Virus record (IMG/VR): IMGVR_UViG_3300046715_000038
Location: 1-38,140 of that record
DNA: 38,140 nucleotides
Origin: a virus
Reading direction: 5' to 3' (one strand)
Shown here: one piece after another, positions 19,404-38,140 of the stretch
Position numbering within the stretch: position 1 is the first letter of the stretch
Layout: each line of letters opens with the position of its first letter
Program-made: the position numbers and the translations under genes
The notes under the pieces: model-generated
The model's input: only the letters and a program-made list of their open reading frames with translations
What the model was told of the DNA's origin: nothing
The model's database searches: none

Positions 19404-20309
19404 ATGGCACACATCTCCAGCATCACCAAAGTCCAGTCCTCGTCGGCCACATCAGTCACGATCACACTCACTGCAGGCATCGCCGCCGGCCACACCTTGA
19501 TCGGTGGGATCTGCTGGGAAGCTGCGGCCGGGACCGTCCCCACGATCTCCTCGATCGTCGACTCCCGAGGCAACACCTGGACGACCACGCCAGATGACTC
19601 GGTCGTCAACGGGGTCACCCTTGCGGTGGCGGTAATCCGCGCCAGAGCTACGACTGCACTGCAAGTCGGGGACACGGTCACCATCACGGTCAGCATCGCT
19701 CGATCCAAGTGGGCGATCCAGATTGATGAGTTCGATGACGTCAACGCCTCATCACCGAAGGATCAGGTAGCGCACAACGCGCCCGCCTCCGCGACGGCCT
19801 TGACGACTGGGACCACGGCGACCACGGCACAGAACTACGAACTCATGTACGTCGCCTTTGGATTTGGCTCGGGGCGAACGATAACAATCCCCGGCGGATG
19901 GTCCGGCGGTGCGTCTGTTGAAACGACCGGCGGCACCGACCGGGCCTTGCAAACGATCTGGAAGTACCAGACCACAGCGGCTGTGGAATCCGGGAGTTTG
20001 ACACTCAACACTACTAGCACCTACGGCGGTGTGATTGTCACGTACAAAGCGACGTCAGCTTCGCCAGCCGTAGGGCGCGTTTCACAAGTGAAGTTCACCA
20101 CCCCACAAGGCGCCGCGTCTCCCGTCGCAAGAGTGACAAGAGTGTCGATGCAGGCGCCGATCGGATCAGTGGGAACCGTTCGCGTCACTCAAGTGAAGAT
20201 GCGCGTACCTGCCGTAGACGATCAAACGCCATACTCGGGTATCAAGGCTATCGTCAATGGTTTCTTCAATGATGCGTCGATCTCGGCTGCCTCGCACGGC
20301 GCGGTGTAA
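19404..20309 (+). CDS. Tail fibre-like minor tail protein B with C-terminal short repeats
   Basis: 301 residues, starting three bases after the previous stop. The first ~215 residues repeat the fibre module of the upstream protein in diverged form (VTITLTAGIAAGHTLIGGICWE, DTVTITVSIARSKWAIQIDEFD, DQVAHNAPASATALTTGTTA, LTLNTTSTYGGVIVTYKAT). After this come three short tandem segments of 17-20 residues: GRVSQVKFTTPQG, ARVTRVSMQAPIG and VRVTQVKMRVPAV. These share the pattern [GAV]-R-V-[ST]-[QR]-V-[KS]-[FM]. The C terminus (YSGIKAIVNGFFNDASISAA) is short. A structural or receptor-binding tail role is inferred. Confidence 0.7.
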   Translation: MAHISSITKVQSSSATSVTITLTAGIAAGHTLIGGICWEAAAGTVPTISSIVDSRGNTWTTTPDDSVVNGVTLAVAVIRARATTALQVGDTVTITVSIARSKWAIQIDEFDDVNASSPKDQVAHNAPASATALTTGTTATTAQNYELMYVAFGFGSGRTITIPGGWSGGASVETTGGTDRALQTIWKYQTTAAVESGSLTLNTTSTYGGVIVTYKATSASPAVGRVSQVKFTTPQGAASPVARVTRVSMQAPIGSVGTVRVTQVKMRVPAVDDQTPYSGIKAIVNGFFNDASISAASHGAV

Positions 20310-20358: not shown

Positions 20359-21192
20359 ATGACCTTCATTAGACACATCAATGAAGCACGAGTAAATGGA
20401 AAGCGTCTCGGCCGGCACGTTCGCCACGACCCCCGATCTTTGTCATACCTCTACCCGGCGGACAAGGTCGGGGACCTTGTCAGCGTAAAGCATGAGCGGC
20501 ACATTCCCGTTCTTGACCAGGGTGACCTAGGAAGCTGCACTGGCAACGCGGCTGAGGGCTGCGTTGGCAGCGCGATGTTTCTCTCTGCGGTTCCCGACGA
20601 AAACAGAGCAAAGCCGACCGGCAACAAGATCGGAGACGAGAGCCAAGCGGTCGTGCTGTACTCTGCCGCGACCAAGCTGGACGACGTTCGTGGCTACTAC
20701 CCTCCGACCGACACTGGGTCAGACGGGCTATCGGTCGCCAAGGCCGCCAAGAAGGCCGGTCTGATCAGTGGGTATCAACACTGCACGAGCCTCGACGCGA
20801 CCCTTAAGGCGTTGTCTCAGCGACCCGTGATCTGCGGTGTGAATTGGTATGAGGGCATGGATGAGCCCGATGAAAACGGACTCGTGAAGATTGCCGGGCA
20901 GGTGCGTGGCGGTCACGAGTTCGTCCTCGACGAGCTTGACGTCGAGAACAAGCTGATTGGCGCCACCAACTCGTGGGGCGAGAGCTTCGGTGTCAATGGA
21001 CGATTCTACATCTCATGGGATGACTTCGAGAAACTGCTATCCGAGGATGGAGATGTGACGGTGTTCGTGCCGATTTCCCAGCCTGCCCCTACTCCTACTC
21101 CCACTCCGAGTGACCAGTTCACAGAATTCACCGCCATGCTCAAGACCTTTGTTACTGAAGTGCAGTCATGGCTCAGGAAGCACGGTATGTAA
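20359..21192 (+). CDS. Papain-like cysteine peptidase (C1A fold)
   Basis: 277 residues with GAAAGGTAGC upstream of ATG. The catalytic set of family C1 is complete. Gln54 and Cys60 lie in VLDQGDLGSCTGNAA (spacing of six, as Gln19/Cys25 in papain). His186 is in RGGHEFVL and Asn204 in TNSWGESFGVNGRFYISW. The first 45 residues (NGKRLGRHVRHDPRSLSY) may be a short propeptide or an anchor. A PTPTPTP linker (about 238-247) leads to a short C-terminal helix. There is no signal peptide. The gene lies between fibre and lysis genes, so it could be a tail-borne enzyme that cuts surface proteins, or act in virion maturation or host lysis. Enzyme class is firm, target unknown. Confidence 0.85.
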   Translation: MTFIRHINEARVNGKRLGRHVRHDPRSLSYLYPADKVGDLVSVKHERHIPVLDQGDLGSCTGNAAEGCVGSAMFLSAVPDENRAKPTGNKIGDESQAVVLYSAATKLDDVRGYYPPTDTGSDGLSVAKAAKKAGLISGYQHCTSLDATLKALSQRPVICGVNWYEGMDEPDENGLVKIAGQVRGGHEFVLDELDVENKLIGATNSWGESFGVNGRFYISWDDFEKLLSEDGDVTVFVPISQPAPTPTPTPSDQFTEFTAMLKTFVTEVQSWLRKHGM

Positions 21193-21242
21193 CTAAAGAA
21201 ATACCCCCGTAAACTGTGAATAAGAGGTAACGGTAAGACTCG

Positions 21243-21292
21243 CCTGCATCTGCTCCCCGCTAGATGCTCGCGATCTCGTTAGCAGACGCAGG
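21243..21292 (+). promoter_or_regulatory. Inverted repeat overlapping the ribosome binding site of the first lysis-cassette gene
   Basis: CCTGCATCTGCT (21243-21254) pairs with AGCAGACGCAGG (21281-21292) with one A-C mismatch, around a 26-base loop. The right arm runs into GCAGGGG, the apparent ribosome binding site six bases before the ATG at 21301. If the RNA folds this way, translation of the membrane protein gene would be lowered until the hairpin opens. No T-run follows, so it is not an intrinsic terminator. The rest of the 108-base gap shows no convincing promoter. Confidence 0.5.
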
Positions 21293-21300
21293 GGTACCCT

Positions 21301-21666
21301 ATGACAGATAAAGATGAAATCGAAAACGTTCCTGACAGGACTGTTATACGCGGTCTGAGCGATATAGCGGCGACGATGATAAGGGAAAGCGTGGGACGTT
21401 ACGAGTACGTTGCCGATCAGCGCTACACAGAGCGTCGGTTCCATGATCTGGAAAGCGACGTAACTGACCTCAAGGATACGCACGCCTCGGACGTCAAAGA
21501 GATAAAGGCGAATATCGCATCACATATTAAAGATCATTCTGATAGCCAGACACGTGAACGCGCGAACTGGCGTCAGTTCTTCTACGCGGGGATCATACCG
21601 TTTGGAATCGCCATCGCCGTGGCACTCTTTTCGGCGTGGATCGCCGCGAAGGGAAGCGGAAAGTGA
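21301..21666 (+). CDS. Small membrane protein with coiled coil and C-terminal TM helix (holin/XhlA-like)
   Basis: 121 residues from ATG behind GCAGGGG. The first ~90 residues are hydrophilic and heptad-rich (YTERRFHDLESDVTDLKDTH and following). A single transmembrane helix near residues 92-115 (FFYAGIIPFGIAIAVALFSA) ends in GSGK. This arrangement resembles XhlA-type lysis helpers and some actinophage lysis-region membrane proteins. Together with the next gene (GTGA overlap) it stands directly before the muramidase, so a holin, pinholin-modulating or spanin-like role is inferred. Homology was not established. Confidence 0.65.
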   Translation: MTDKDEIENVPDRTVIRGLSDIAATMIRESVGRYEYVADQRYTERRFHDLESDVTDLKDTHASDVKEIKANIASHIKDHSDSQTRERANWRQFFYAGIIPFGIAIAVALFSAWIAAKGSGK

Positions 21667-22124
21667 TACACATTACGCGACGACACGTTGGCGTTTTTGC
21701 TGCTTCGAGTAGCTACGCGTTGATCGCGCTCATTGGGATCATAGGGATAAGTCGGGTTCTTGGAAACACGTCGTCTCCAGAGATCGCGGCTCCGGCCCCG
21801 ACAGTGACACCGTCGAGTGACACGCCAACGCCGCCGACAGACAGAACCCCCACCATCAAACCGTCTGCAAAACCGCCGTCTGATTCTAACCCCAGAGACG
21901 GCGGTAGAGGCGTCATGGCGGCGCCGCTGGTGTCTGTCAAGCCAGTTGGCCACGGTGGCTCTAGACCCACCTCCGGCACGTCTAGCCCCATCACTCAACC
22001 GACGCCACCGTCGACCCCCGTGTCTCCGAGTCAAGCCATCGTTGCGGTGCGCGTTTCACTAAGAGCTATTCAGTGTGACGCGGTTCGCGTCGGAAATGTA
22101 GTCTCGGCTGGAGGGGCCTGTTAA
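21663..22124 (+). CDS. Signal-anchored Pro/Thr/Ser-rich membrane protein of the lysis cassette
   Basis: 153 residues from the GTG at 21663, chosen because it overlaps the previous stop (GTGA) and follows GGAAGCGGAA. A longer reading from 21636 has no such site. Residues 9-33 form one hydrophobic helix (VGVFAASSSYALIALIGIIG). The remainder is Pro/Thr/Ser-rich low complexity (SSDTPTPPTDRTPTIKPSAK), followed by a short hydrophobic piece with two cysteines near the end (AIQCDAVRV...GGAC). The helix would anchor it in the membrane with the tail in the cell wall, as in spanin-like or wall-spanning lysis proteins; this is inference. No lipobox is visible. Confidence 0.6.
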   Translation: MIHITRRHVGVFAASSSYALIALIGIIGISRVLGNTSSPEIAAPAPTVTPSSDTPTPPTDRTPTIKPSAKPPSDSNPRDGGRGVMAAPLVSVKPVGHGGSRPTSGTSSPITQPTPPSTPVSPSQAIVAVRVSLRAIQCDAVRVGNVVSAGGAC

Positions 22125-22126
22125 CC

Positions 22127-23074
22127 ATGCTTCATGGATTTGACGTGAGCGCCTACCAAGGTACCGGCGTGCCAACGTGTGACTTCATTATCATCAAAGC
22201 GACCGAAGGCAAGAGCTACACCAGCTCCAAGTTCAAAGCTCAATACACAAGCGCCAAGACCAACGCGAAGCATCGTGGCGCGTACCACTTCGCTCGGCCT
22301 GAAGAATCTTCATACAAGGACCAGGTGAAGCGGTTCCTCGACACCGCGCAGCCTAAGGTCGGCGAGTCGGTGTGGCTGGACCTTGAAGCCTCGAAGCTCA
22401 CCCAAGCGGAGACGAACGCGTGGGCGCGCGGCTGGGGTGACACCATGTGGGACCAGGCGCCCGGTGTCACCTCGGGCAGTTACCTCGGCTCCGGATACGT
22501 GTCCAACAACACCGGCCGCGACCTTAGCAAGCACTTTGATTTGTGGTGGTATCCGCAGTATTCGGGCGCGTATCAAGTGGCCCCGTTCGGCGTAGATCTC
22601 GAGGAGCTCCGCGCCGAGAACAGGTCGTCGCTAATCCCTGAGCGTCGCCTCATCACCACGACCACCACGGCGTGGCCGCCCACGGTGACACCGTGGCTGC
22701 CGTCCACGAACAACACCGGTTGGAAGAAGCCAGACCTGTGGCAGTTCACAGACAACTGGCGGGGCCTCGACGCCTCCATCACGACCCTCACGATTGCCCA
22801 GCTCGCCGGCGGCCAACCCGCGCCAATCCCGAAGCCGATTCCGGCTCCGAAGGTGTGGCCGGGCCGATACCTGAAGCTCGCGTCCCCGCTGATGCACGGC
22901 AGTGACGTGACGTGGACACAGCAGCACCTCAACACGCGCGGTTCGAAGCTCACTGCTGACGGCCAGTACGGGCCGAAAACCCGCGACGCCGTGAAGGCGT
23001 TTCAGAAGGCCAAGCGCCTCACCGTCGACGGGATCGTCGGCAAAGCCACGTGGACGGCCCTCGGCAAGTCCTGA
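22127..23074 (+). CDS. Endolysin: GH25 muramidase with C-terminal peptidoglycan-binding domain
   Basis: 315 residues. GH25 features are GFDVSAYQG at the start (first catalytic-region Asp), DFIIIKATEG, RGAYHFARPE, VWLDLEAS (catalytic Asp/Glu pair in the beta-barrel) and DLWQFTDNW near the end of the barrel. The enzyme cuts the MurNAc-GlcNAc bond. Residues 155-185 (VDLEELRAENRSS...) look inserted compared with compact phage GH25 enzymes, before PPTVTPWLPS. A Pro-rich linker (APIPKPIPAPK) leads to a PF01471-type wall-binding domain (DGQYGPKTRDAVKAFQKAK). No signal peptide is seen, so release needs a holin. GAGGGG lies upstream of the ATG, two bases after the previous stop. Confidence 0.92.
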   Translation: MLHGFDVSAYQGTGVPTCDFIIIKATEGKSYTSSKFKAQYTSAKTNAKHRGAYHFARPEESSYKDQVKRFLDTAQPKVGESVWLDLEASKLTQAETNAWARGWGDTMWDQAPGVTSGSYLGSGYVSNNTGRDLSKHFDLWWYPQYSGAYQVAPFGVDLEELRAENRSSLIPERRLITTTTTAWPPTVTPWLPSTNNTGWKKPDLWQFTDNWRGLDASITTLTIAQLAGGQPAPIPKPIPAPKVWPGRYLKLASPLMHGSDVTWTQQHLNTRGSKLTADGQYGPKTRDAVKAFQKAKRLTVDGIVGKATWTALGKS

Positions 23075-23093
23075 TTTGCACAAACCACCTGAC

Positions 23094-23117
23094 GCCCCGG
23101 CCAGCGCGCCGGGCCTT
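23094..23117 (+). terminator. Short GC-rich hairpin between the two endolysin genes (weak terminator)
   Basis: CCCGGC (23096-23101) pairs with GCCGGG (23108-23113) over a six-base loop, followed by CCTTTC. The T-run is only three bases, so it would end transcription poorly. It may reduce read-through or protect the upstream message, and it precedes the GGAAGGGG ribosome binding site of the CHAP lysin. Confidence 0.35.
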
Positions 23118-23135
23118 TCGCATGGAAGGGGCACC

Positions 23136-23984
23136 ATGCCCGAGCTTGACGAGCAGCTCTACGCGCTACCGAACGAGCCGACACCGATCCAGCCGACCAA
23201 CGCCGCTGGCACCATGCCCGACGACCCCGACCAGGCCGACGTCTCCCAAGACCCCACGCCTGACCTCGACGAGACTGAGCATGCCGCGCTTCTGGCCACC
23301 GCCGGCGGTGTCACCGCGCACACGATCTTGACACTCGCGGCCTCACAGATCGGCACGGGGGAGTCCCCAGCGGGGAGCAACAAGAACAAGTACTCGAAGT
23401 GGTACGGGACGACCGGCGCCTGGTGCTGGATGTTCCTGTGCTGGCTCTTCGACCAGAAGGGCGCGCTCGCGCTCGTCTTCGGGAAGCACGCGTACGTCCC
23501 CTACTTCAAAGCCGTCTTCTCGGCGCACGGCGAGTTCCACACCAGCAGCCCGAAGCCTGGTGACCTTGTCGCCTTCGACTTCAACCGGTCTGGCGACCCG
23601 GAGCACATCGGCATCGTGGAGAAGGTCATCTCCGGGTCTACGATCCAGACGATCGAGGGCAACACCAGCGACCACGTCATGCGCCGCACCCGTAGCCGCT
23701 CCTACGTGTACGGCTACGCCACCCCGAAGTACGCTGCCGCGCCACCCGCCAGTCCGAACGCCTACCCGGGCACGGTCTACAGATACGTCAATGGCAAGAC
23801 ACTGATGTCCGGTTCCCACGTGAAGTGGATCCAGACTAGGCTCGCCGCCCACAAGCACGCGGTCAGCGTCGACAGCCAGTACGGGCCGAAGACGGCGGCC
23901 GCGGTGAAGAGCTTCCAGAAGGATGCCAAGCTCACCGCCGATGGCGAGGTCGGCCCGAAGACGTGGGCCGCGTTGGCCAAGTGA
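23136..23984 (+). CDS. Second endolysin: CHAP amidase/endopeptidase with C-terminal peptidoglycan-binding domain
   Basis: 282 residues from the ATG at 23136, chosen for the GGAAGGGG site; a longer reading from 23076 crosses the intergenic hairpin. After an acidic N terminus (DDPDQADVSQDPTPDLDE), residues about 70-185 are a CHAP domain: ASQIGTGESPAGSNKNKYS, AWCWMFLCW (catalytic Cys), PKPGDLVAFDF, EHIGIVEKV (His) and IEGNTSD (Asn). A Pro/Ala linker joins a PF01471-type domain (DSQYGPKTAAAVKSFQKDAK) clearly related to that of the upstream muramidase. It should cut peptide or amide bonds of the wall, complementing the GH25 enzyme. The CHAP part also resembles the one in the tape measure. Confidence 0.9.
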   Translation: MPELDEQLYALPNEPTPIQPTNAAGTMPDDPDQADVSQDPTPDLDETEHAALLATAGGVTAHTILTLAASQIGTGESPAGSNKNKYSKWYGTTGAWCWMFLCWLFDQKGALALVFGKHAYVPYFKAVFSAHGEFHTSSPKPGDLVAFDFNRSGDPEHIGIVEKVISGSTIQTIEGNTSDHVMRRTRSRSYVYGYATPKYAAAPPASPNAYPGTVYRYVNGKTLMSGSHVKWIQTRLAAHKHAVSVDSQYGPKTAAAVKSFQKDAKLTADGEVGPKTWAALAK

Positions 23985-24013: not shown

Positions 24014-24355
24014 GTGAAGATCTTTGGCTACGAGCCGGCCACCATCCTCTACGCGGTGAACGCCGCAGTGGCGCTGCTCGTCTCGTACGGCCTGCCGCTG
24101 AACCATGACATGGTCGCGGCGATCACCGTCATCGCGACGGCAGTGCTCACCATCGCTACCGCCGTGATGACGCGCCCGTTCGTGGTGTCGTCAGTGACAG
24201 CGGCCGTCGGCTCGCTGCTCGCCGCAGTGGCGGCGTTCGGCCTGCACCTGTCTGGCAACCAGATCGGTACGGCGGTGACGGCCCTGTCGGTGGTACTGAT
24301 GCTGCTGCTCCGTCAGAACGTGACTCCGGCGCCAGCGGTAGCTGTTCGGCGATAG
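24014..24355 (+). CDS. Holin-like membrane protein (four predicted TM helices)
   Basis: 113 residues from GTG with AAGGAGACTAA upstream. Four hydrophobic stretches follow one another: ATILYAVNAAVALLVSYGLP, MVAAITVIATAVLTIATAVM, VVSSVTAAVGSLLAAVAAFG and GTAVTALSVVLMLLL. The C terminus is short and basic (VAVRR). Small size, multiple helices and position right after the second endolysin fit a holin that lets the lysins reach the wall. Similar proteins after lysins in actinophages are annotated as holin or membrane protein. It is the last gene before a strong terminator. Confidence 0.72.
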   Translation: MKIFGYEPATILYAVNAAVALLVSYGLPLNHDMVAAITVIATAVLTIATAVMTRPFVVSSVTAAVGSLLAAVAAFGLHLSGNQIGTAVTALSVVLMLLLRQNVTPAPAVAVRR

Positions 24356-25577: not shown

Positions 25578-26921
25578 TCAGGCTACGAGTTGAGATGAAG
25601 CAGCGTTCTCGGCGCGCTGCTTCGGTTCACGCTTGGTCGCTTCGGCGGCGTTAGGCGCGGTCTTCCAGTGCTTGGACACGTCGTGCAGGTACTCACGCTC
25701 GACGTCTTCTGCGCCCTTGACGAAGTCGCTGACCCTGCGACCGCGTTCGAACTCACCGGGGTTGCCCTCGAGACTCCGCTTGGCCCACGTCGAGATCCAC
25801 TCGCCACAGTGAACGGAGACTCCCTTGCCCCACCCGTTCTGAAGGGTCTTTTCGTCCTTCAGCGGTTCAACGAGCCAGTTGTCGGGGAAGCCCATGATTC
25901 GCGCGATCTCACGGTGCGTGAAGAACCGTGGGAGCTTCGGGTGAATGGCGATCAGCGGACCGGCCCCGGTGACCACGTACGCCGGTTTGTTCCAGCGCCA
26001 GCGACCGACCTGGAACATGCCGAAGTCGAACTCCTTGTCAAGTGCCCACTTGTCGAGTGTGCGCACCTCACCGGTGGCCATCGTCTTGCGCTTCTTCGTC
26101 TTCCACCGCTCGGGGAATGTCCCGGTCGACTCGTAGTAGTGGCGCGCCGCGTCACCCTCGGACTCGCCCTCGGCCCAGAACTCATTGTTGTCGCGGATGA
26201 GGTCGATGACGATGTGTGCGTCACCCTCGGGCATCGTTTCGTGTCCGTCGACGAGTCCGTCCTCACGGCGGAACTGCTTGCTCCACCAGGTAGGTTCGGC
26301 CACGTACGGGAGCTCTTCCATCGAGAGCGGCTGGTCGATGAGGTCGCCGATGGCGTCCGCGAGTACCGGAACCTGTTCGAGATTCGGAACGTCGACGCCG
26401 AACGGAACGCGACTGCAGACCATGAAGTATCGCGCCCGTTTGGAACAGCCGCCGAGAGAGTAGTTGTCCTGGAGCACGTGGTGAAGCTCGTACTGGTGCC
26501 CGGTCAGGCGCTCGAGCTCATCGCGGAGTTTCCGCATGAGCGGGAGCCCCTTGCTGAACGCGGAGCGAACCGACTCCATGATGTAGATGTCGGGGTTACT
26601 CTTAGCGGCAAAGCGCACAGAGTCCCACATACACGAGTTGATCTTACTGTCCATCCCACGGAATCCGGGGTTTGACAGAACAGAAAAACCAGCGCAAGGA
26701 GGATTTGCGATGACGATGTCAACCTTCTCTGCTGCCCAGTCTTCGGGGGCTGCGACCTGAGCAGTCCACGAGTGTCCGAGGAGGTGTCGGTTCGCCTCAC
26801 ACTGAGGCATACCGAAACCGCCCAACGCAGAGCTCTCACACTTGGTTACGAGTTCAAGACCAGCCTGTACGGCGCCGAGGGTGAACCCCCCGGCGAAGCC
26901 GTGAACATCACTGAAACGCAT
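25578..26921 (-). CDS. Divergent DNA cytosine-C5 methyltransferase
   Basis: 447 residues from the ATG at 26921, which has AAGGAAGG five bases upstream. C5-MTase motifs are in order. Motif I is DVHGFAGGFTLG (residues 5-16). Motif IV is NPPCAGFS with catalytic Cys76. Motif VI is MESV (116-118), motif VIII CSKRARYF (about 149-156), a variable target-recognition region follows, motif IX is THREIARIMGFPDNW, and motif X is GWGKGVSVHCGEW. Several usual residues differ: PCQ is PCA, ENV is ESV, and the motif X Gly-Asn is Gly-Lys (Lys366). The core chemistry (Cys attack on C6) is kept. No restriction gene is adjacent. It may protect phage DNA or start cytosine hypermodification with the neighbouring glycosyltransferase-like gene. 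Confidence 0.85.
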   Translation of the reverse strand: MRFSDVHGFAGGFTLGAVQAGLELVTKCESSALGGFGMPQCEANRHLLGHSWTAQVAAPEDWAAEKVDIVIANPPCAGFSVLSNPGFRGMDSKINSCMWDSVRFAAKSNPDIYIMESVRSAFSKGLPLMRKLRDELERLTGHQYELHHVLQDNYSLGGCSKRARYFMVCSRVPFGVDVPNLEQVPVLADAIGDLIDQPLSMEELPYVAEPTWWSKQFRREDGLVDGHETMPEGDAHIVIDLIRDNNEFWAEGESEGDAARHYYESTGTFPERWKTKKRKTMATGEVRTLDKWALDKEFDFGMFQVGRWRWNKPAYVVTGAGPLIAIHPKLPRFFTHREIARIMGFPDNWLVEPLKDEKTLQNGWGKGVSVHCGEWISTWAKRSLEGNPGEFERGRRVSDFVKGAEDVEREYLHDVSKHWKTAPNAAEATKREPKQRAENAASSQLVA

Positions 26922-26983
26922 GAACACCTTCCTTCGGTGTAGTCACCTGGCTCATCAGTGCGAAGGAAGTGATCCCCTCACAA

Positions 26984-32156: not shown

Positions 32157-33995
32157 TTACACTGCCCCAAGAAGTTTGAGCAGAAGTACTCGGTCGCGCA
32201 CGACCTCCTCGAGCCGCTCCAGCTTGCCACCGAGTGCCTCGCGCTGTCGCTCCTCTACAGTGTCCTTGCTGATGATGTCGATGATCTCCACAGAGTCGTG
32301 GATCTCACTGCCGATGCGGTGAACTCGGTCCTCTGCCTGGGCGTTCTTGAGCGCTGACCAGTGGCGGTTGAGGAACACGAGCTTGCTCGCTCGCGTCATC
32401 GTAAGCCCCTCTCCGGCCGCGTCGTGTGTGCACAGTAGTACGCGCTGCTTCCCCGCTTGGAACGCGTCCACGCGCCTCTGACGCTCGTCTGCGGCCTGGT
32501 CTCCGGTGACCAGCACCGGGTACTCCTTCTCGTCCACGATCTTGAGTTTGACGAGTCGCTCGTTGGCCAACTTGACGAGCTTCTTGCTGGCGGAGAACAC
32601 GACCAGTGGCTCATCATCGAGGTCTTCGAGCAGCTCAACCAACGCGTCGACCTTGTTGCTCGGGTCCGCGAGCTCGACGTGGATGTCCATCGTCTCACTA
32701 CCGGTAGCGTGCTGCTTGACGACCTCGACAAGCTGGGCGTAGGCGCTGGCGAACTGCATGAGTCGGCCGACCTTGACGAGCGGGTTCGCCGCCGTCAAGA
32801 TCTCCTCATCAAGACGTGCCGCCATGTACTCTTCCATCTCACGATACGCCTTCGCCTGCTTGGCCGCCATCTCGACCTCGATGGTCGTGTAGACCTTGTC
32901 GGGCAGCTGAGGCAAGATGACCTTCTTGGGTAGCCGGCGCATCCGCGGGTCGACGATCTTGAACAGCTCATCTTTGGTCGCGGGGTTGAGCCCGAGCATC
33001 TCCATGCCGCCGAAGAAGTTGAAGCTCGTCTCCACGTACCGATCCACGTACTTGGACTTTGTGGGAAACTCGAGAGGCGACACGAGGTGCATGAGCGCCC
33101 ACAGGTCCGCGGCGTTCTTCTCGGTCGGCGTTCCCGTGAGCGCGTACCGACGCTCTACCGTTGGACCGTGAGCGATCGACCAGACGGCGCGCGTCCACTT
33201 GGCTTTCGGCTCTTTGAGCCGGTGTGCCTCATCCGCGATCACGGTCTTGTACCCCGCGGTGTTCAGCTCTCGCGGGCACCACTCACAGCTCGTCTGCTTG
33301 ACCTTGGGGCAGAGCTCAGGCTCGCATACCTGGCACCTCTTCAAGGAGATCTGACCGTATGAGGCGAGTCGAGAGTGCAGCCGTACCGCGTCGTAGTTGA
33401 TGACGTAGACGTCCGCCTCTTCCGCGAGCGCCTTACGCCTTCCTGCCGCTCCACCGGACGCCACGCTGACCCGAATCCCGGGCCACCACTTGGCGAACTC
33501 ACGCTCCCAGGTGTACTTGATCCCGTTCGGGCAGACGACGAGCGCGGGAAAGACGTCCTTCTTGTCGACCTCTTGTATGATCTTCAACGCGCCGATGGTC
33601 TGGGCGGTCTTGCCGCTGCCCATGCTCTCGGCTAGGAGACCTTGGCCGGCGATCGCCATGAACAGCGCGCCTACCTGCTGGAACGGGTACAGGTTCTCGT
33701 TGACACCGCCGTCGATGCCGAGCTCTGGGATCTCAGTCAACTCACGGAGTTTCGCGCACGGGTCGACCCGGGCCTTGAACTCGTTCCACGACCAGTCGTT
33801 GAGCATCTCACCGACCTCGAGCTTGTCTCCGAACAGCGCGCGCAGCGCCACGCACGTGCCCCACGAGAGCGGGGCGTTCCACTTCTGGGTCTTACCGTTG
33901 TACTTCGAGCCCGGAAGCTGACGGATCAGGTGCCGGTCAACGTAGCTGGTCTCAACGATGATAGTGCCGTCTGTATCAAGATCGGCGTGGGGCAC
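32157..33995 (-). CDS. SNF2-type DNA helicase/translocase with cysteine-cluster insertion
   Basis: 612 residues from GTG with GAGGAAG upstream. The N-terminal 60 residues resemble a HARP-like substrate-binding piece (VETSYVDRHLIRQLPGSKYN, QKWNAPLSW). Motor motifs are ESMGSGKTAQT (Walker A, 124-134), IADEAHRLKEP (Walker B DEAH, 255-258), LTGTP (motif III, 286-290), VFSASKKLVKLANERLVKLK, and CTHDAAGEGLTM and QAEDRVHRIGS (motifs V/VI near 560). Between motifs Ia and II are Cys221, 224, 229, 237 and 240 (CQVCEPELCP...CEWC), probably a zinc site inserted into lobe 1. It likely remodels forks or recombination intermediates. SNF2 phage helicases commonly stand with PolA and RuvC-like genes, as here. 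Confidence 0.88.
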   Translation of the reverse strand: MPHADLDTDGTIIVETSYVDRHLIRQLPGSKYNGKTQKWNAPLSWGTCVALRALFGDKLEVGEMLNDWSWNEFKARVDPCAKLRELTEIPELGIDGGVNENLYPFQQVGALFMAIAGQGLLAESMGSGKTAQTIGALKIIQEVDKKDVFPALVVCPNGIKYTWEREFAKWWPGIRVSVASGGAAGRRKALAEEADVYVINYDAVRLHSRLASYGQISLKRCQVCEPELCPKVKQTSCEWCPRELNTAGYKTVIADEAHRLKEPKAKWTRAVWSIAHGPTVERRYALTGTPTEKNAADLWALMHLVSPLEFPTKSKYVDRYVETSFNFFGGMEMLGLNPATKDELFKIVDPRMRRLPKKVILPQLPDKVYTTIEVEMAAKQAKAYREMEEYMAARLDEEILTAANPLVKVGRLMQFASAYAQLVEVVKQHATGSETMDIHVELADPSNKVDALVELLEDLDDEPLVVFSASKKLVKLANERLVKLKIVDEKEYPVLVTGDQAADERQRRVDAFQAGKQRVLLCTHDAAGEGLTMTRASKLVFLNRHWSALKNAQAEDRVHRIGSEIHDSVEIIDIISKDTVEERQREALGGKLERLEEVVRDRVLLLKLLGAV

Positions 33996-36250: not shown

Positions 36251-36453
36251 CAGACCTCCTCAAGGTAGCCGTTGAGAACGTCACGAAGTGCTCGCACATC
36301 CTCATTAGAGAGTTTGCAGATGCGGTTGCCGATCTCGAAGACTACACCCGTACGATCAGCTAGGTTGAACGTTCGAAGGTTCTCACCAAACCTGGGCTGA
36401 GGGTTCATCGAGTGAAGTGTGCGATCGAAGTTGACCTTGTAAGTTGATGTCAT
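36250..36453 (-). CDS. Small unknown protein coupled to DNA polymerase
   Basis: 67 residues from the ATG at 36453, which overlaps the polymerase stop (ATGA); a GTG at 36468 would be the alternative with a deeper overlap. Sequence: MTSTYKVNFDRTLHSMNPQP, NLRTFNLADRTGVVFEIGNR, then CKLSNEDVRALRDVLNGYLE. The first two-thirds appear to be beta strands and the end a helix, so a small alpha+beta fold is likely. The function is unknown; the coupling means it is made in proportion to the polymerase. Confidence 0.68.
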   Translation of the reverse strand: MTSTYKVNFDRTLHSMNPQPRFGENLRTFNLADRTGVVFEIGNRICKLSNEDVRALRDVLNGYLEEV

Positions 36454-38140
36454 CCCTTGGTACTCCACCTCTCGCCGAACATATCCGCGGACCAGGTCAG
36501 CGGGACTCGGTACGTGTCTGCATCGTTGAGTGTCGCCTCGATCAAGTTCTTCACTTCGATGGCGTCTTCCTTGGGCACGTCCGTCACGATCTCGTCGTGG
36601 ATCGGAACGACCATGTACGGGCCAAGACCCGCGGCGTCAAGGTCTACGAGACCCTTCTTGAGGATCTCGGCAGAGTGTCCCTGGATCTTGTAGTTCAACA
36701 GCGCGTACTCTCGATTGCCCTCGAGCGGGAGCCGACGACCATGCGGTGTGACGATGTACGCGACTCCGTGATCGCGCATATTGTCACGCGCTTCCTGCTT
36801 GGTCTGCTCCATGAGTTGAGCAAGACCGGGGAACGACTCGTCCATTCTGTCAATGAACATCTGCGCGACGTCGGTGGTGACCTTCGCCGTACGAGCGATA
36901 GTAGGAGCCTCTGCGCCGAAGAGACGACCGTAACTCGTATTCTTGATGATTTGCCGACGCTTGTCGCCCTTCTTGATGTCCTCATTGAGCATTCGACTGG
37001 CCATCGCGCAAAAGAAGTCCGTGTCGCCGAGGAAGGCGTCGATCAGCCCCTGGTCGCCTGAGAAGTGGGCGGCCATCCGCATCTCGATCTGGTCAGCGTC
37101 ACACGTCACGATCTCATGACCGGGCGACGCGATGAACGCCTCGCGGACCGTCGGGTCGTCACGCTGGAGCGTCTGCAGCGCCGGGTCGGTGACGCTCATC
37201 CGACCGGTCTTAGCGCCCATCGTGTTGATCGAGCAGTGGACGTATCCGTTCTCGTCGGCGCCATCGAGGAAGTTCTCAAGGTACGAGCCGCAGATCTTCT
37301 CGGCCTTGCGAACCTTGAGCACGGTGGACGCGACGACGGGAACGTCGTAGTGACCTCCCTGACGTACCAGCTGTCCAGACACATCTGTCACCTCATCGCC
37401 GAAGCTGGCGATCCAGTCAAGAACCTCCTTGTCGAGCGCGTAGCCCTTGCCGCTCTTCGAGAGCTTCGTGAAGTGAACGCCCTGACTCTGGAAGTACGCG
37501 AGGAGCTGCATATTCGACGTTGCGTTCTTGATCCCGAACGTCGACCGCAGCCAATCTCGCGCCTCGCCCGCGTAACCGCGAAGCTGCTTGATCTTCTCGT
37601 GGCAGTACTCCTCATCAATCCGCGCGCCGCGGAGCATCATGTTCGCGCAGACTCGAATCGTGCCCATCTCGAGGTCGTATGCAGACGTGGCACCAGAATC
37701 GATAACCTGCTGGTAGAACCTGTTGTCGATGTGTGAAGTGATCACGGGGTCAAGCGCGCCATACACCCAGTAATGCGGGTGGTCGATAGGAACCGTGGCC
37801 CAATCCCACCCGTTCGTCGCCATGGTGTCTTTCAACAGATCTTGGCCGGCCACCGCCTTGGCGTCAATGTACCGAGCACCAAGTGCCTTCAAGCCCTTCG
37901 GTCGCGTGGGGTCAAGTACGTGCGCCTGCGCCATGGTGTCACGGATACGCTCCCACGGCGGCTTCCAACCCTTCATCCAGGTCTGCGTGTGACGAACGTC
38001 ATGGGACGAGTTATGCATGGCGATCTCTTCCTCATACGAGGTAAGAGCCTCACGCGCGACACCGCCCCACTCCTCCCAGGGGATCGCCCACCCGTTCTGC
38101 ATGTCACCGAACTGGCATAGACGAAGCTTGTGACGCTCCG
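36450..38140 (-). CDS. polA: Family A DNA polymerase (PolA-like), 5' truncated at the window edge
   Basis: About 563 residues are visible; the frame stays open to 38140, so the Met at 38102 is internal and the true start lies outside. The N-terminal visible part is the 3'-5' exonuclease end (AQAHVLDPTRPKGLKALGAR, YGALDPVITSHI). Polymerase motifs are complete: motif A TCDADQIEMRMAAHFSGD, motif B RRQIIKNTSYGRLFGAEAP, and motif C VVPIHDEIVTDVP. Motif B has Tyr at the position of E. coli Phe762/T7 Tyr526. The gene would replicate the phage genome and leads the visible leftward block. It is translationally coupled to the small gene after it. Confidence 0.92.
   Translation of the reverse strand, partial: ERHKLRLCQFGDMQNGWAIPWEEWGGVAREALTSYEEEIAMHNSSHDVRHTQTWMKGWKPPWERIRDTMAQAHVLDPTRPKGLKALGARYIDAKAVAGQDLLKDTMATNGWDWATVPIDHPHYWVYGALDPVITSHIDNRFYQQVIDSGATSAYDLEMGTIRVCANMMLRGARIDEEYCHEKIKQLRGYAGEARDWLRSTFGIKNATSNMQLLAYFQSQGVHFTKLSKSGKGYALDKEVLDWIASFGDEVTDVSGQLVRQGGHYDVPVVASTVLKVRKAEKICGSYLENFLDGADENGYVHCSINTMGAKTGRMSVTDPALQTLQRDDPTVREAFIASPGHEIVTCDADQIEMRMAAHFSGDQGLIDAFLGDTDFFCAMASRMLNEDIKKGDKRRQIIKNTSYGRLFGAEAPTIARTAKVTTDVAQMFIDRMDESFPGLAQLMEQTKQEARDNMRDHGVAYIVTPHGRRLPLEGNREYALLNYKIQGHSAEILKKGLVDLDAAGLGPYMVVPIHDEIVTDVPKEDAIEVKNLIEATLNDADTYRVPLTWSADMFGERWSTKG

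What the first reader, a model, noticed from the sequence alone, without database searches (positions are those of the whole stretch)
20359..21192. Complete papain-like peptidase at the tail/lysis border
Seen: Gln54, Cys60, His186 and Asn204 are all present with papain-like spacing, and a Pro-Thr linker leads to a helix. Known: family C1 peptidases are rare in tailed phages, where most peptidases act on capsid proteins. With no signal peptide and placement after the fibre genes, it may be virion-bound and act on host surface proteins, or help break cross-linked wall proteins in lysis.
Basis: partly seen in the sequence, partly recalled or inferred. Interest (0 to 1): 0.66.

Follow-up and report, generated by a model that had tools for sequence, protein, structure and literature searches.

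The report
Phage papain-like protease in lysis cassette
This bacterial virus carries an intact papain-like protein-cutting enzyme of a kind already annotated in dozens of related viruses; its gene usually travels with the genes that burst the host cell, so it most likely helps in host break-up, but what it cuts is unknown.

Summary
ORF 20359-21192 encodes a full-length C1A (papain-type) peptidase with Gln54, Cys60, His186 and Asn204, no signal peptide, and a Pro/Thr linker to a C-terminal helix. Gln, Cys and His are invariant in 122 of 122 aligned family members (Asn is Gln in 5). The AlphaFold2 model (pLDDT 95) matches xylellain (3OIS, Z 21.9) best.

It is not a new kind. PHROG 16701 'peptidase' fits at 2e-54, 54 GenBank phages carry relatives, many annotated 'cysteine protease', and xylellain-type C1A genes in tailed phages are published (PMC10380794).

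New here: (1) 31 of 46 non-redundant phage/prophage loci have a peptidoglycan hydrolase within 3.5 kb; in Gordonia phages the gene overlaps a free-standing lysin A C-terminal domain gene. (2) The most conserved segment is N-terminal (16-30), where zymogen propeptides lie: probably a self-inhibiting plug. (3) A bacterial sister clade is paired with chagasin (I42) inhibitor genes. (4) Exceptions exist: tRNA arrays, terminase-portal, lone genes in jumbo phages.

Best reading: a latent protease co-expressed with lysis genes, leaving through the holin to cut envelope proteins (about 0.45). The virion-bound idea found no support. Ordinary family, open function.

The parts
20359..21192 (+). Xylellain-type C1A cysteine peptidase, 277 aa (catalytic Q54, C60, H186, N204)
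20404..20448 (+). Codons 16-30, RLGRHVRHDPRSLSY: most conserved segment, probable zymogen plug
   Evidence: entropy 0.99 bits; aligns within propeptides of proenzymes by range; plug role inferred
20449..20487 (+). Codons 31-43: variable linker, possible activation site
   Evidence: entropy 2.71 bits; role inferred
21067..21189 (+). Codons 237-277: Pro/Thr-rich linker and C-terminal helix (250-274)
21301..21666 (+). 121-aa protein, charged N-terminal part and one C-terminal TM segment, lysis-cassette neighbour
   Evidence: no Pfam hit over cut-off
21636..22124 (+). 162-aa ORF with one N-terminal TM segment and Pro/Thr-rich rest
   Evidence: mechanical ORF, gene status unsure
22127..23074 (+). 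GH25 endolysin with PG_binding_1
   Evidence: Pfam 6e-20 and 7e-19
23076..23984 (+). CHAP endolysin with PG_binding_1
   Evidence: Pfam 2e-11 and 1e-16
24014..24355 (+). Probable holin, 113 aa, up to four TM segments
   Evidence: clusters with L062 holin (phrog_9752, 1.5e-26)

Best explanation
The gene encodes an active xylellain-type C1A cysteine peptidase, made in the host cytoplasm as a latent zymogen. Its conserved N-terminal segment (residues 16-30) probably lies in the active-site cleft and is cut off or displaced on activation. The gene belongs to the lysis cassette and is expressed late with endolysins and holin. When the holin opens the membrane, the protease, which like an endolysin has no signal peptide, leaves the cytoplasm and cuts envelope or other host proteins, so that the actinobacterial envelope gives way or virions are freed. 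The variable Pro-rich linker and C-terminal helix would hold it to a membrane or partner. Shown: catalytic residues, fold, selection, association with lysis genes. Inferred: activity, latency, release by holin, substrates, role of the tail.
For: Identity (about 0.97 sure): PHROG 16701 2e-54; profile best match xylellain 3OIS 5e-16, then cathepsins; model pLDDT 95, 3OIS Z 21.9 over 211 residues; catalytic residues invariant; dN/dS 0.07-0.44. Lysis: 31 of 46 non-redundant loci have a peptidoglycan hydrolase within 3.5 kb (binomial 2e-9 against a rough 25% expectation of mine; relatedness weakens this). In the nearest relatives L014-L017 CHAP and/or GH25- or Rv2525c-type genes precede it and a 2-TM holin-like gene follows at once, with a 4-bp overlap in L016 and L017, while in the window it precedes the lysins: order changes, cassette membership stays. 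In 27 of 61 loci the next plus-strand gene starts within -12..+5 bases of its stop. In Gordonia phages it overlaps by 4 bp a ~123-aa gene homologous to the C-terminal domain of lysin A and is followed by a holin. Latency: segment 16-30 is the most conserved stretch, then a variable linker; mature C1A enzymes align from model residue 39, proenzymes from 9-10, inside their propeptides. Protein-cutting cleft: all five loci of a bacterial sister clade have an adjacent I42 chagasin gene.
Against: Not all members sit in lysis cassettes: tRNA arrays (L018/L022/L023, Shaeky, Sycamore, Muntaha), between terminase and portal (L060, L081 group), other regions (Saguaro, DrLupo), lone inverted genes in jumbo phages. 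Phages with similar cassettes do without it (OneUp, Fury). In the window 108 bases separate it from the next ORF, so no coupling there. No substrate or activity data.
Confidence: 0.45

Rival explanations
1. Host-directed cytoplasmic protease: an accessory gene whose product cuts host (or defence) proteins inside the cell during infection; lysis cassettes and tRNA arrays are merely places where accessory genes settle.
For: Patchy distribution; no signal peptide; insertion within or beside tRNA arrays in unrelated phages, in L018 also near a TROVE gene; lone inverted gene in jumbo phages; PMC7824862 argues that patchy jumbo-phage peptidases act on host proteins.
Against: 31 of 46 loci are beside peptidoglycan hydrolases, often abutting endolysin or holin genes, and in Gordonia phages the gene overlaps a lysin-domain gene.
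Confidence: 0.28
2. Virion-bound protease carried at the tail or in the head, acting on host surface proteins at entry.
For: In the window it follows tail-region genes; in some groups it lies by head genes or after a virion structural gene.
Against: No constant link to one structural gene; no tail or virion domain; tail module not shared with other proteins in the loci.
Confidence: 0.1
3. It is an endolysin that cuts peptidoglycan peptides with a papain fold, as CHAP and NlpC/P60 domains do.
For: Lysis location; coupled lysin A C-terminal-domain gene; GMA2 genes annotated 'putative lysin'.
Against: C1A, not CHAP or NlpC/P60, by sequence and fold; full C1A tetrad; bacterial relatives paired with chagasin, an inhibitor of papain-like proteinases; the window already has two endolysins.
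Confidence: 0.1
4. Maturation protease for phage structural proteins.
For: Terminase-portal location in one clade.
Against: Known prohead proteases are of other families; gene absent from most phages and mostly far from head genes.
Confidence: 0.05

Closest known systems
Xylellain (Xylella fastidiosa, 3OIS) and short bacterial C1A peptidases
   Same: Fold, Gln-Cys-His-Asn, short N-terminal segment before the catalytic domain; distant bacterial homologues have a comparable PDxPDxRD motif there
   Different: 19% identity over the aligned core; most phage proteins add a Pro-rich linker and helix; phage-borne
PHROG 16701 / actinophage 'cysteine protease' (Mufasa8 gp26, Forza gp111, Aleemily gp29, Lilbeanie gp40)
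   Same: Direct homologues, 38-46% identity over the matched part, same active site
   Different: These lack the C-terminal tail; the Gordonia ones follow an overlapping lysin A C-terminal-domain gene
Actinobacterial chromosomal C1A enzymes beside I42 chagasin genes (L118-L122)
   Same: Homologous peptidase with the same catalytic residues and N-terminal GR motif
   Different: Paired with an inhibitor gene; none found in 26 phage records
CHAP and NlpC/P60 endolysins
   Same: Papain-like clan fold (established knowledge) and lysis location
   Different: No CHAP or NlpC/P60 match in scans of this family

Membership tests
Peptidase family C1A (papain) | Gln (oxyanion hole), Cys, His, Asn in this order | tested here: met
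   Q54, C60, H186 in 122/122; N204 in 117/122, Q in 5
Peptidase family C1A (papain) | Papain fold | tested here: met
   pLDDT 95 model; best matches are C1A, 3OIS Z 21.9
Peptidase family C1A (papain) | Sequence profile match | tested here: met
   Family profile finds 154 PDB sequences at E<=0.01, the listed ones C1 peptidases; PF00112 in 34 of 74 members, not in the window copy alone
Peptidase family C1A (papain) | Proteolytic activity, E-64 sensitivity | not testable with these tools
   needs the expressed protein
Xylellain-type C1A | Short N-terminal segment instead of a long I29 propeptide | tested here: met
   Only about 45 residues precede the catalytic domain; no Pfam hit there; motif comparable to bacterial PDxPDxRD
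Xylellain-type C1A | N-terminal segment blocks the active site | tested here: inconclusive
   Overlay with propeptides inferred from alignment ranges only; coordinates not at hand
PHROG 16701 | Profile match over most of the length | tested here: met
   residues 15-238 against 3-231 of 234, E 2.3e-54
Endolysin (peptidoglycan hydrolase) | Known peptidoglycan-hydrolase or wall-binding domain in the protein | tested here: not met
   none in Pfam scans of the window copy and 74 members
Endolysin (peptidoglycan hydrolase) | Cuts peptidoglycan | not testable with these tools
   needs an assay
Virion protein | Present in purified particles | not testable with these tools
   needs proteomics

The most novel reading that the evidence does not exclude
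Actinophages use a self-inhibited papain-type protease as an extra, protein-cutting arm of lysis beside their endolysins, activated by loss of its N-terminal plug; bacterial kin of the enzyme are held in check by chagasin, so that host chagasin could act as an anti-phage factor.
Probability: 0.12. Interest if true: 0.65.

Novelty: new member of a known kind. Interest (0 to 1): 0.36.

Why it matters
The family is annotated but I found no tested function for it. If it is a lysis protease, actinobacterial lysis would include a proteolytic step aimed at proteins, beside the attack on peptidoglycan. The chagasin pairing in bacterial relatives offers a natural inhibitor for tests, and natural cassettes with the gene (Forza, GMA2, Lilbeanie, Aleemily) and without it (OneUp, Fury) make the question directly testable.

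Tried and rejected
Searching the collections with a 12-member diverse alignment gave no usable pattern. The C-terminal tail was sought in other proteins of the loci as a possible virion or wall tag: nothing convincing. Gordonia partner gene as a protease inhibitor: rejected, it is a lysin A C-terminal domain, and no I42 gene was found in 26 phage records. Intergenic hairpin 21193-21310 as a regulatory RNA: z -1.96, 10 of 200 shuffles as stable, not convincing. L091's tail with two TM segments looks holin-like by layout only; no Pfam support. My ORF caller failed on lower-GC loci (L018, L052, L067), so 'no context' counts are upper bounds; rechecked by tblastn, naive ORFs and ARAGORN. No functional paper on this phage family was found in the held library; the xylellain structure paper is not held.

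Full report
What is there. ORF 20359-21192 (+) encodes 277 aa. Gln54, Cys60, His186 and Asn204 are present as described. Pfam does not recognise the window copy, but PHROG 16701 'peptidase' does at 2.3e-54, and a profile of 74 relatives finds xylellain (3OIS, 5e-16) and then cathepsins and ficins. Across 122 aligned relatives Gln54, Cys60, His186, Ser205 and Trp206 never change, and position 204 is Asn in 117 and Gln in 5. Pairs of relatives have dN/dS of 0.07-0.44. AlphaFold2 with the 74-row alignment gives pLDDT 95.2 and pTM 0.88; Foldseek and VIA-align rank xylellain first (Z 21.9, 211 residues, 2.6 A), followed by C1A enzymes and their proforms. It is a complete and conserved C1A peptidase; activity itself is inferred.

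Known or new. tblastn finds relatives in 54 GenBank phage records, mostly of Mycobacterium, Gordonia and Streptomyces, many annotated 'cysteine protease' or 'peptidase', in 27 Streptomyces/Kitasatospora plasmid records (the plasmid-phage ZL12 is one carrier), and in 406 IMG/VR loci by pattern search. PMC10380794 reports that short bacterial xylellain-type C1A peptidases were acquired by Myoviridae and Siphoviridae. PMC4982276 describes a cysteine protease-like endolysin in the lysis cassette of Gordonia phage BetterKatz; whether it belongs to this family was not tested. So the family is known; its function is not.

Surroundings. In the window the gene lies between a tail-region gene (19404-20309, no family hit) and a lysis cassette: two TM ORFs, a GH25 endolysin, a CHAP endolysin and a probable holin at 24014-24355. 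In the nearest relatives (L014-L017) the order differs: CHAP and/or GH25- or Rv2525c-like genes come first, then the protease, then at once a small 2-TM holin-like gene, with a 4-bp overlap in L016 and L017. Of 46 non-redundant phage or prophage loci with enough flanking DNA, 31 have a peptidoglycan hydrolase within 3.5 kb. Against a rough 25% expectation, my own estimate, this is 2e-9; relatedness makes the number only indicative. On a tree of 88 members the lysis label needs 19 changes against 29.7 in shuffles. In 27 of 61 loci the next plus-strand gene starts within -12..+5 bases of the protease stop.

The Gordonia partner. In GMA2, Forza, Lilbeanie and Aleemily a ~123-aa gene overlaps the protease start by 4 bases. 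This small protein is homologous to the C-terminal part of lysin A of other Gordonia, Rhodococcus and Mycobacterium phages (OneUp 39% over 122 residues, 4e-23; Fury 2e-10; Phrux 1e-5), the part generally taken to bind the cell wall (established knowledge, not tested here). OneUp and Fury have similar cassettes without the protease: natural comparators.

Exceptions. In three large phages (L018, L022, L023) the gene sits inside arrays of 17-22 tRNA genes, in L018 also near a TROVE gene. Shaeky and Sycamore have it inside, Muntaha and BillNye at the edge of, a tRNA array. One group has it between terminase and portal. Saguaro and DrLupo have it away from lysis genes; jumbo phages XacN1 and RAS14 have it as a lone inverted gene. 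So the role need not be lysis in all phages, and a host-directed role stays a serious rival.

How it may work. Residues 16-30 (RLGRHVRHDPRSLSY) are the most conserved stretch of the protein (mean entropy 0.99 bits), followed by a variable linker (31-43, 2.71 bits). In the structural comparison mature C1A enzymes begin to align at about model residue 39, proenzymes at 9-10, within their propeptides. Distant bacterial homologues carry a comparable PDxPDxRD segment. I recall, but could not read here, that the xylellain paper reports its N-terminal segment blocking the active site. The simplest reading is a zymogen with a conserved plug. The atomic position of the plug was not checked, since coordinates are not at hand.

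Inhibitor in bacterial kin. Five actinobacterial chromosomal relatives (L118-L122, one clade, support 100/99) each have an adjacent gene of one cluster; three were tested and match the chagasin family I42 at 1e-18 to 1e-20. A distant relative, L164, has an I42-like motif about 500 bases away. No I42 gene was found in 26 phage records. This supports a papain-like, protein-cutting cleft.

Verdict. The peptidase interpretation is supported, the lysis idea is supported by neighbourhood, the virion idea is not supported. It is a new member of a known kind with an open, testable function.

Noticed in passing
L118-L122 (e.g. L121:5420-5740 -): Actinobacterial chromosomal C1A peptidases of this family are paired with chagasin-type I42 inhibitor genes in varied orientation; a possible protease-inhibitor module.
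   Followed up: partly
L018:3152-11424, also L022, L023: Arrays of 17-22 tRNA genes enclosing the protease gene; L018 also has a TROVE/vWA (Ro60-like) gene.
   Followed up: partly
L003:5639-6010, L005:4600-4968, L007:4618-4989, L004:5597-5980: Free-standing lysin A C-terminal-domain genes, annotated hypothetical or putative lysin, overlapping the protease gene by 4 bases.
   Followed up: yes
L091:6001-7212: Protease with a long Pro-rich tail and two predicted TM segments, whereas its close relative L088 has a different tail without them: the tail looks exchangeable.
   Followed up: partly
L081:3798-4253: 151-aa protein beside the protease with Cys and His motifs that look vaguely papain-like; no Pfam hit.
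   Followed up: no
window 21193-21310: Long imperfect hairpin between the protease gene and the next ORF, close to its start; stability only marginal against shuffles.
   Followed up: partly
window 25578-26927, 32157-33995, 36450-38102 (-): Leftward block with a C5 cytosine methylase, an SNF2-type helicase and a family A DNA polymerase.
   Followed up: no
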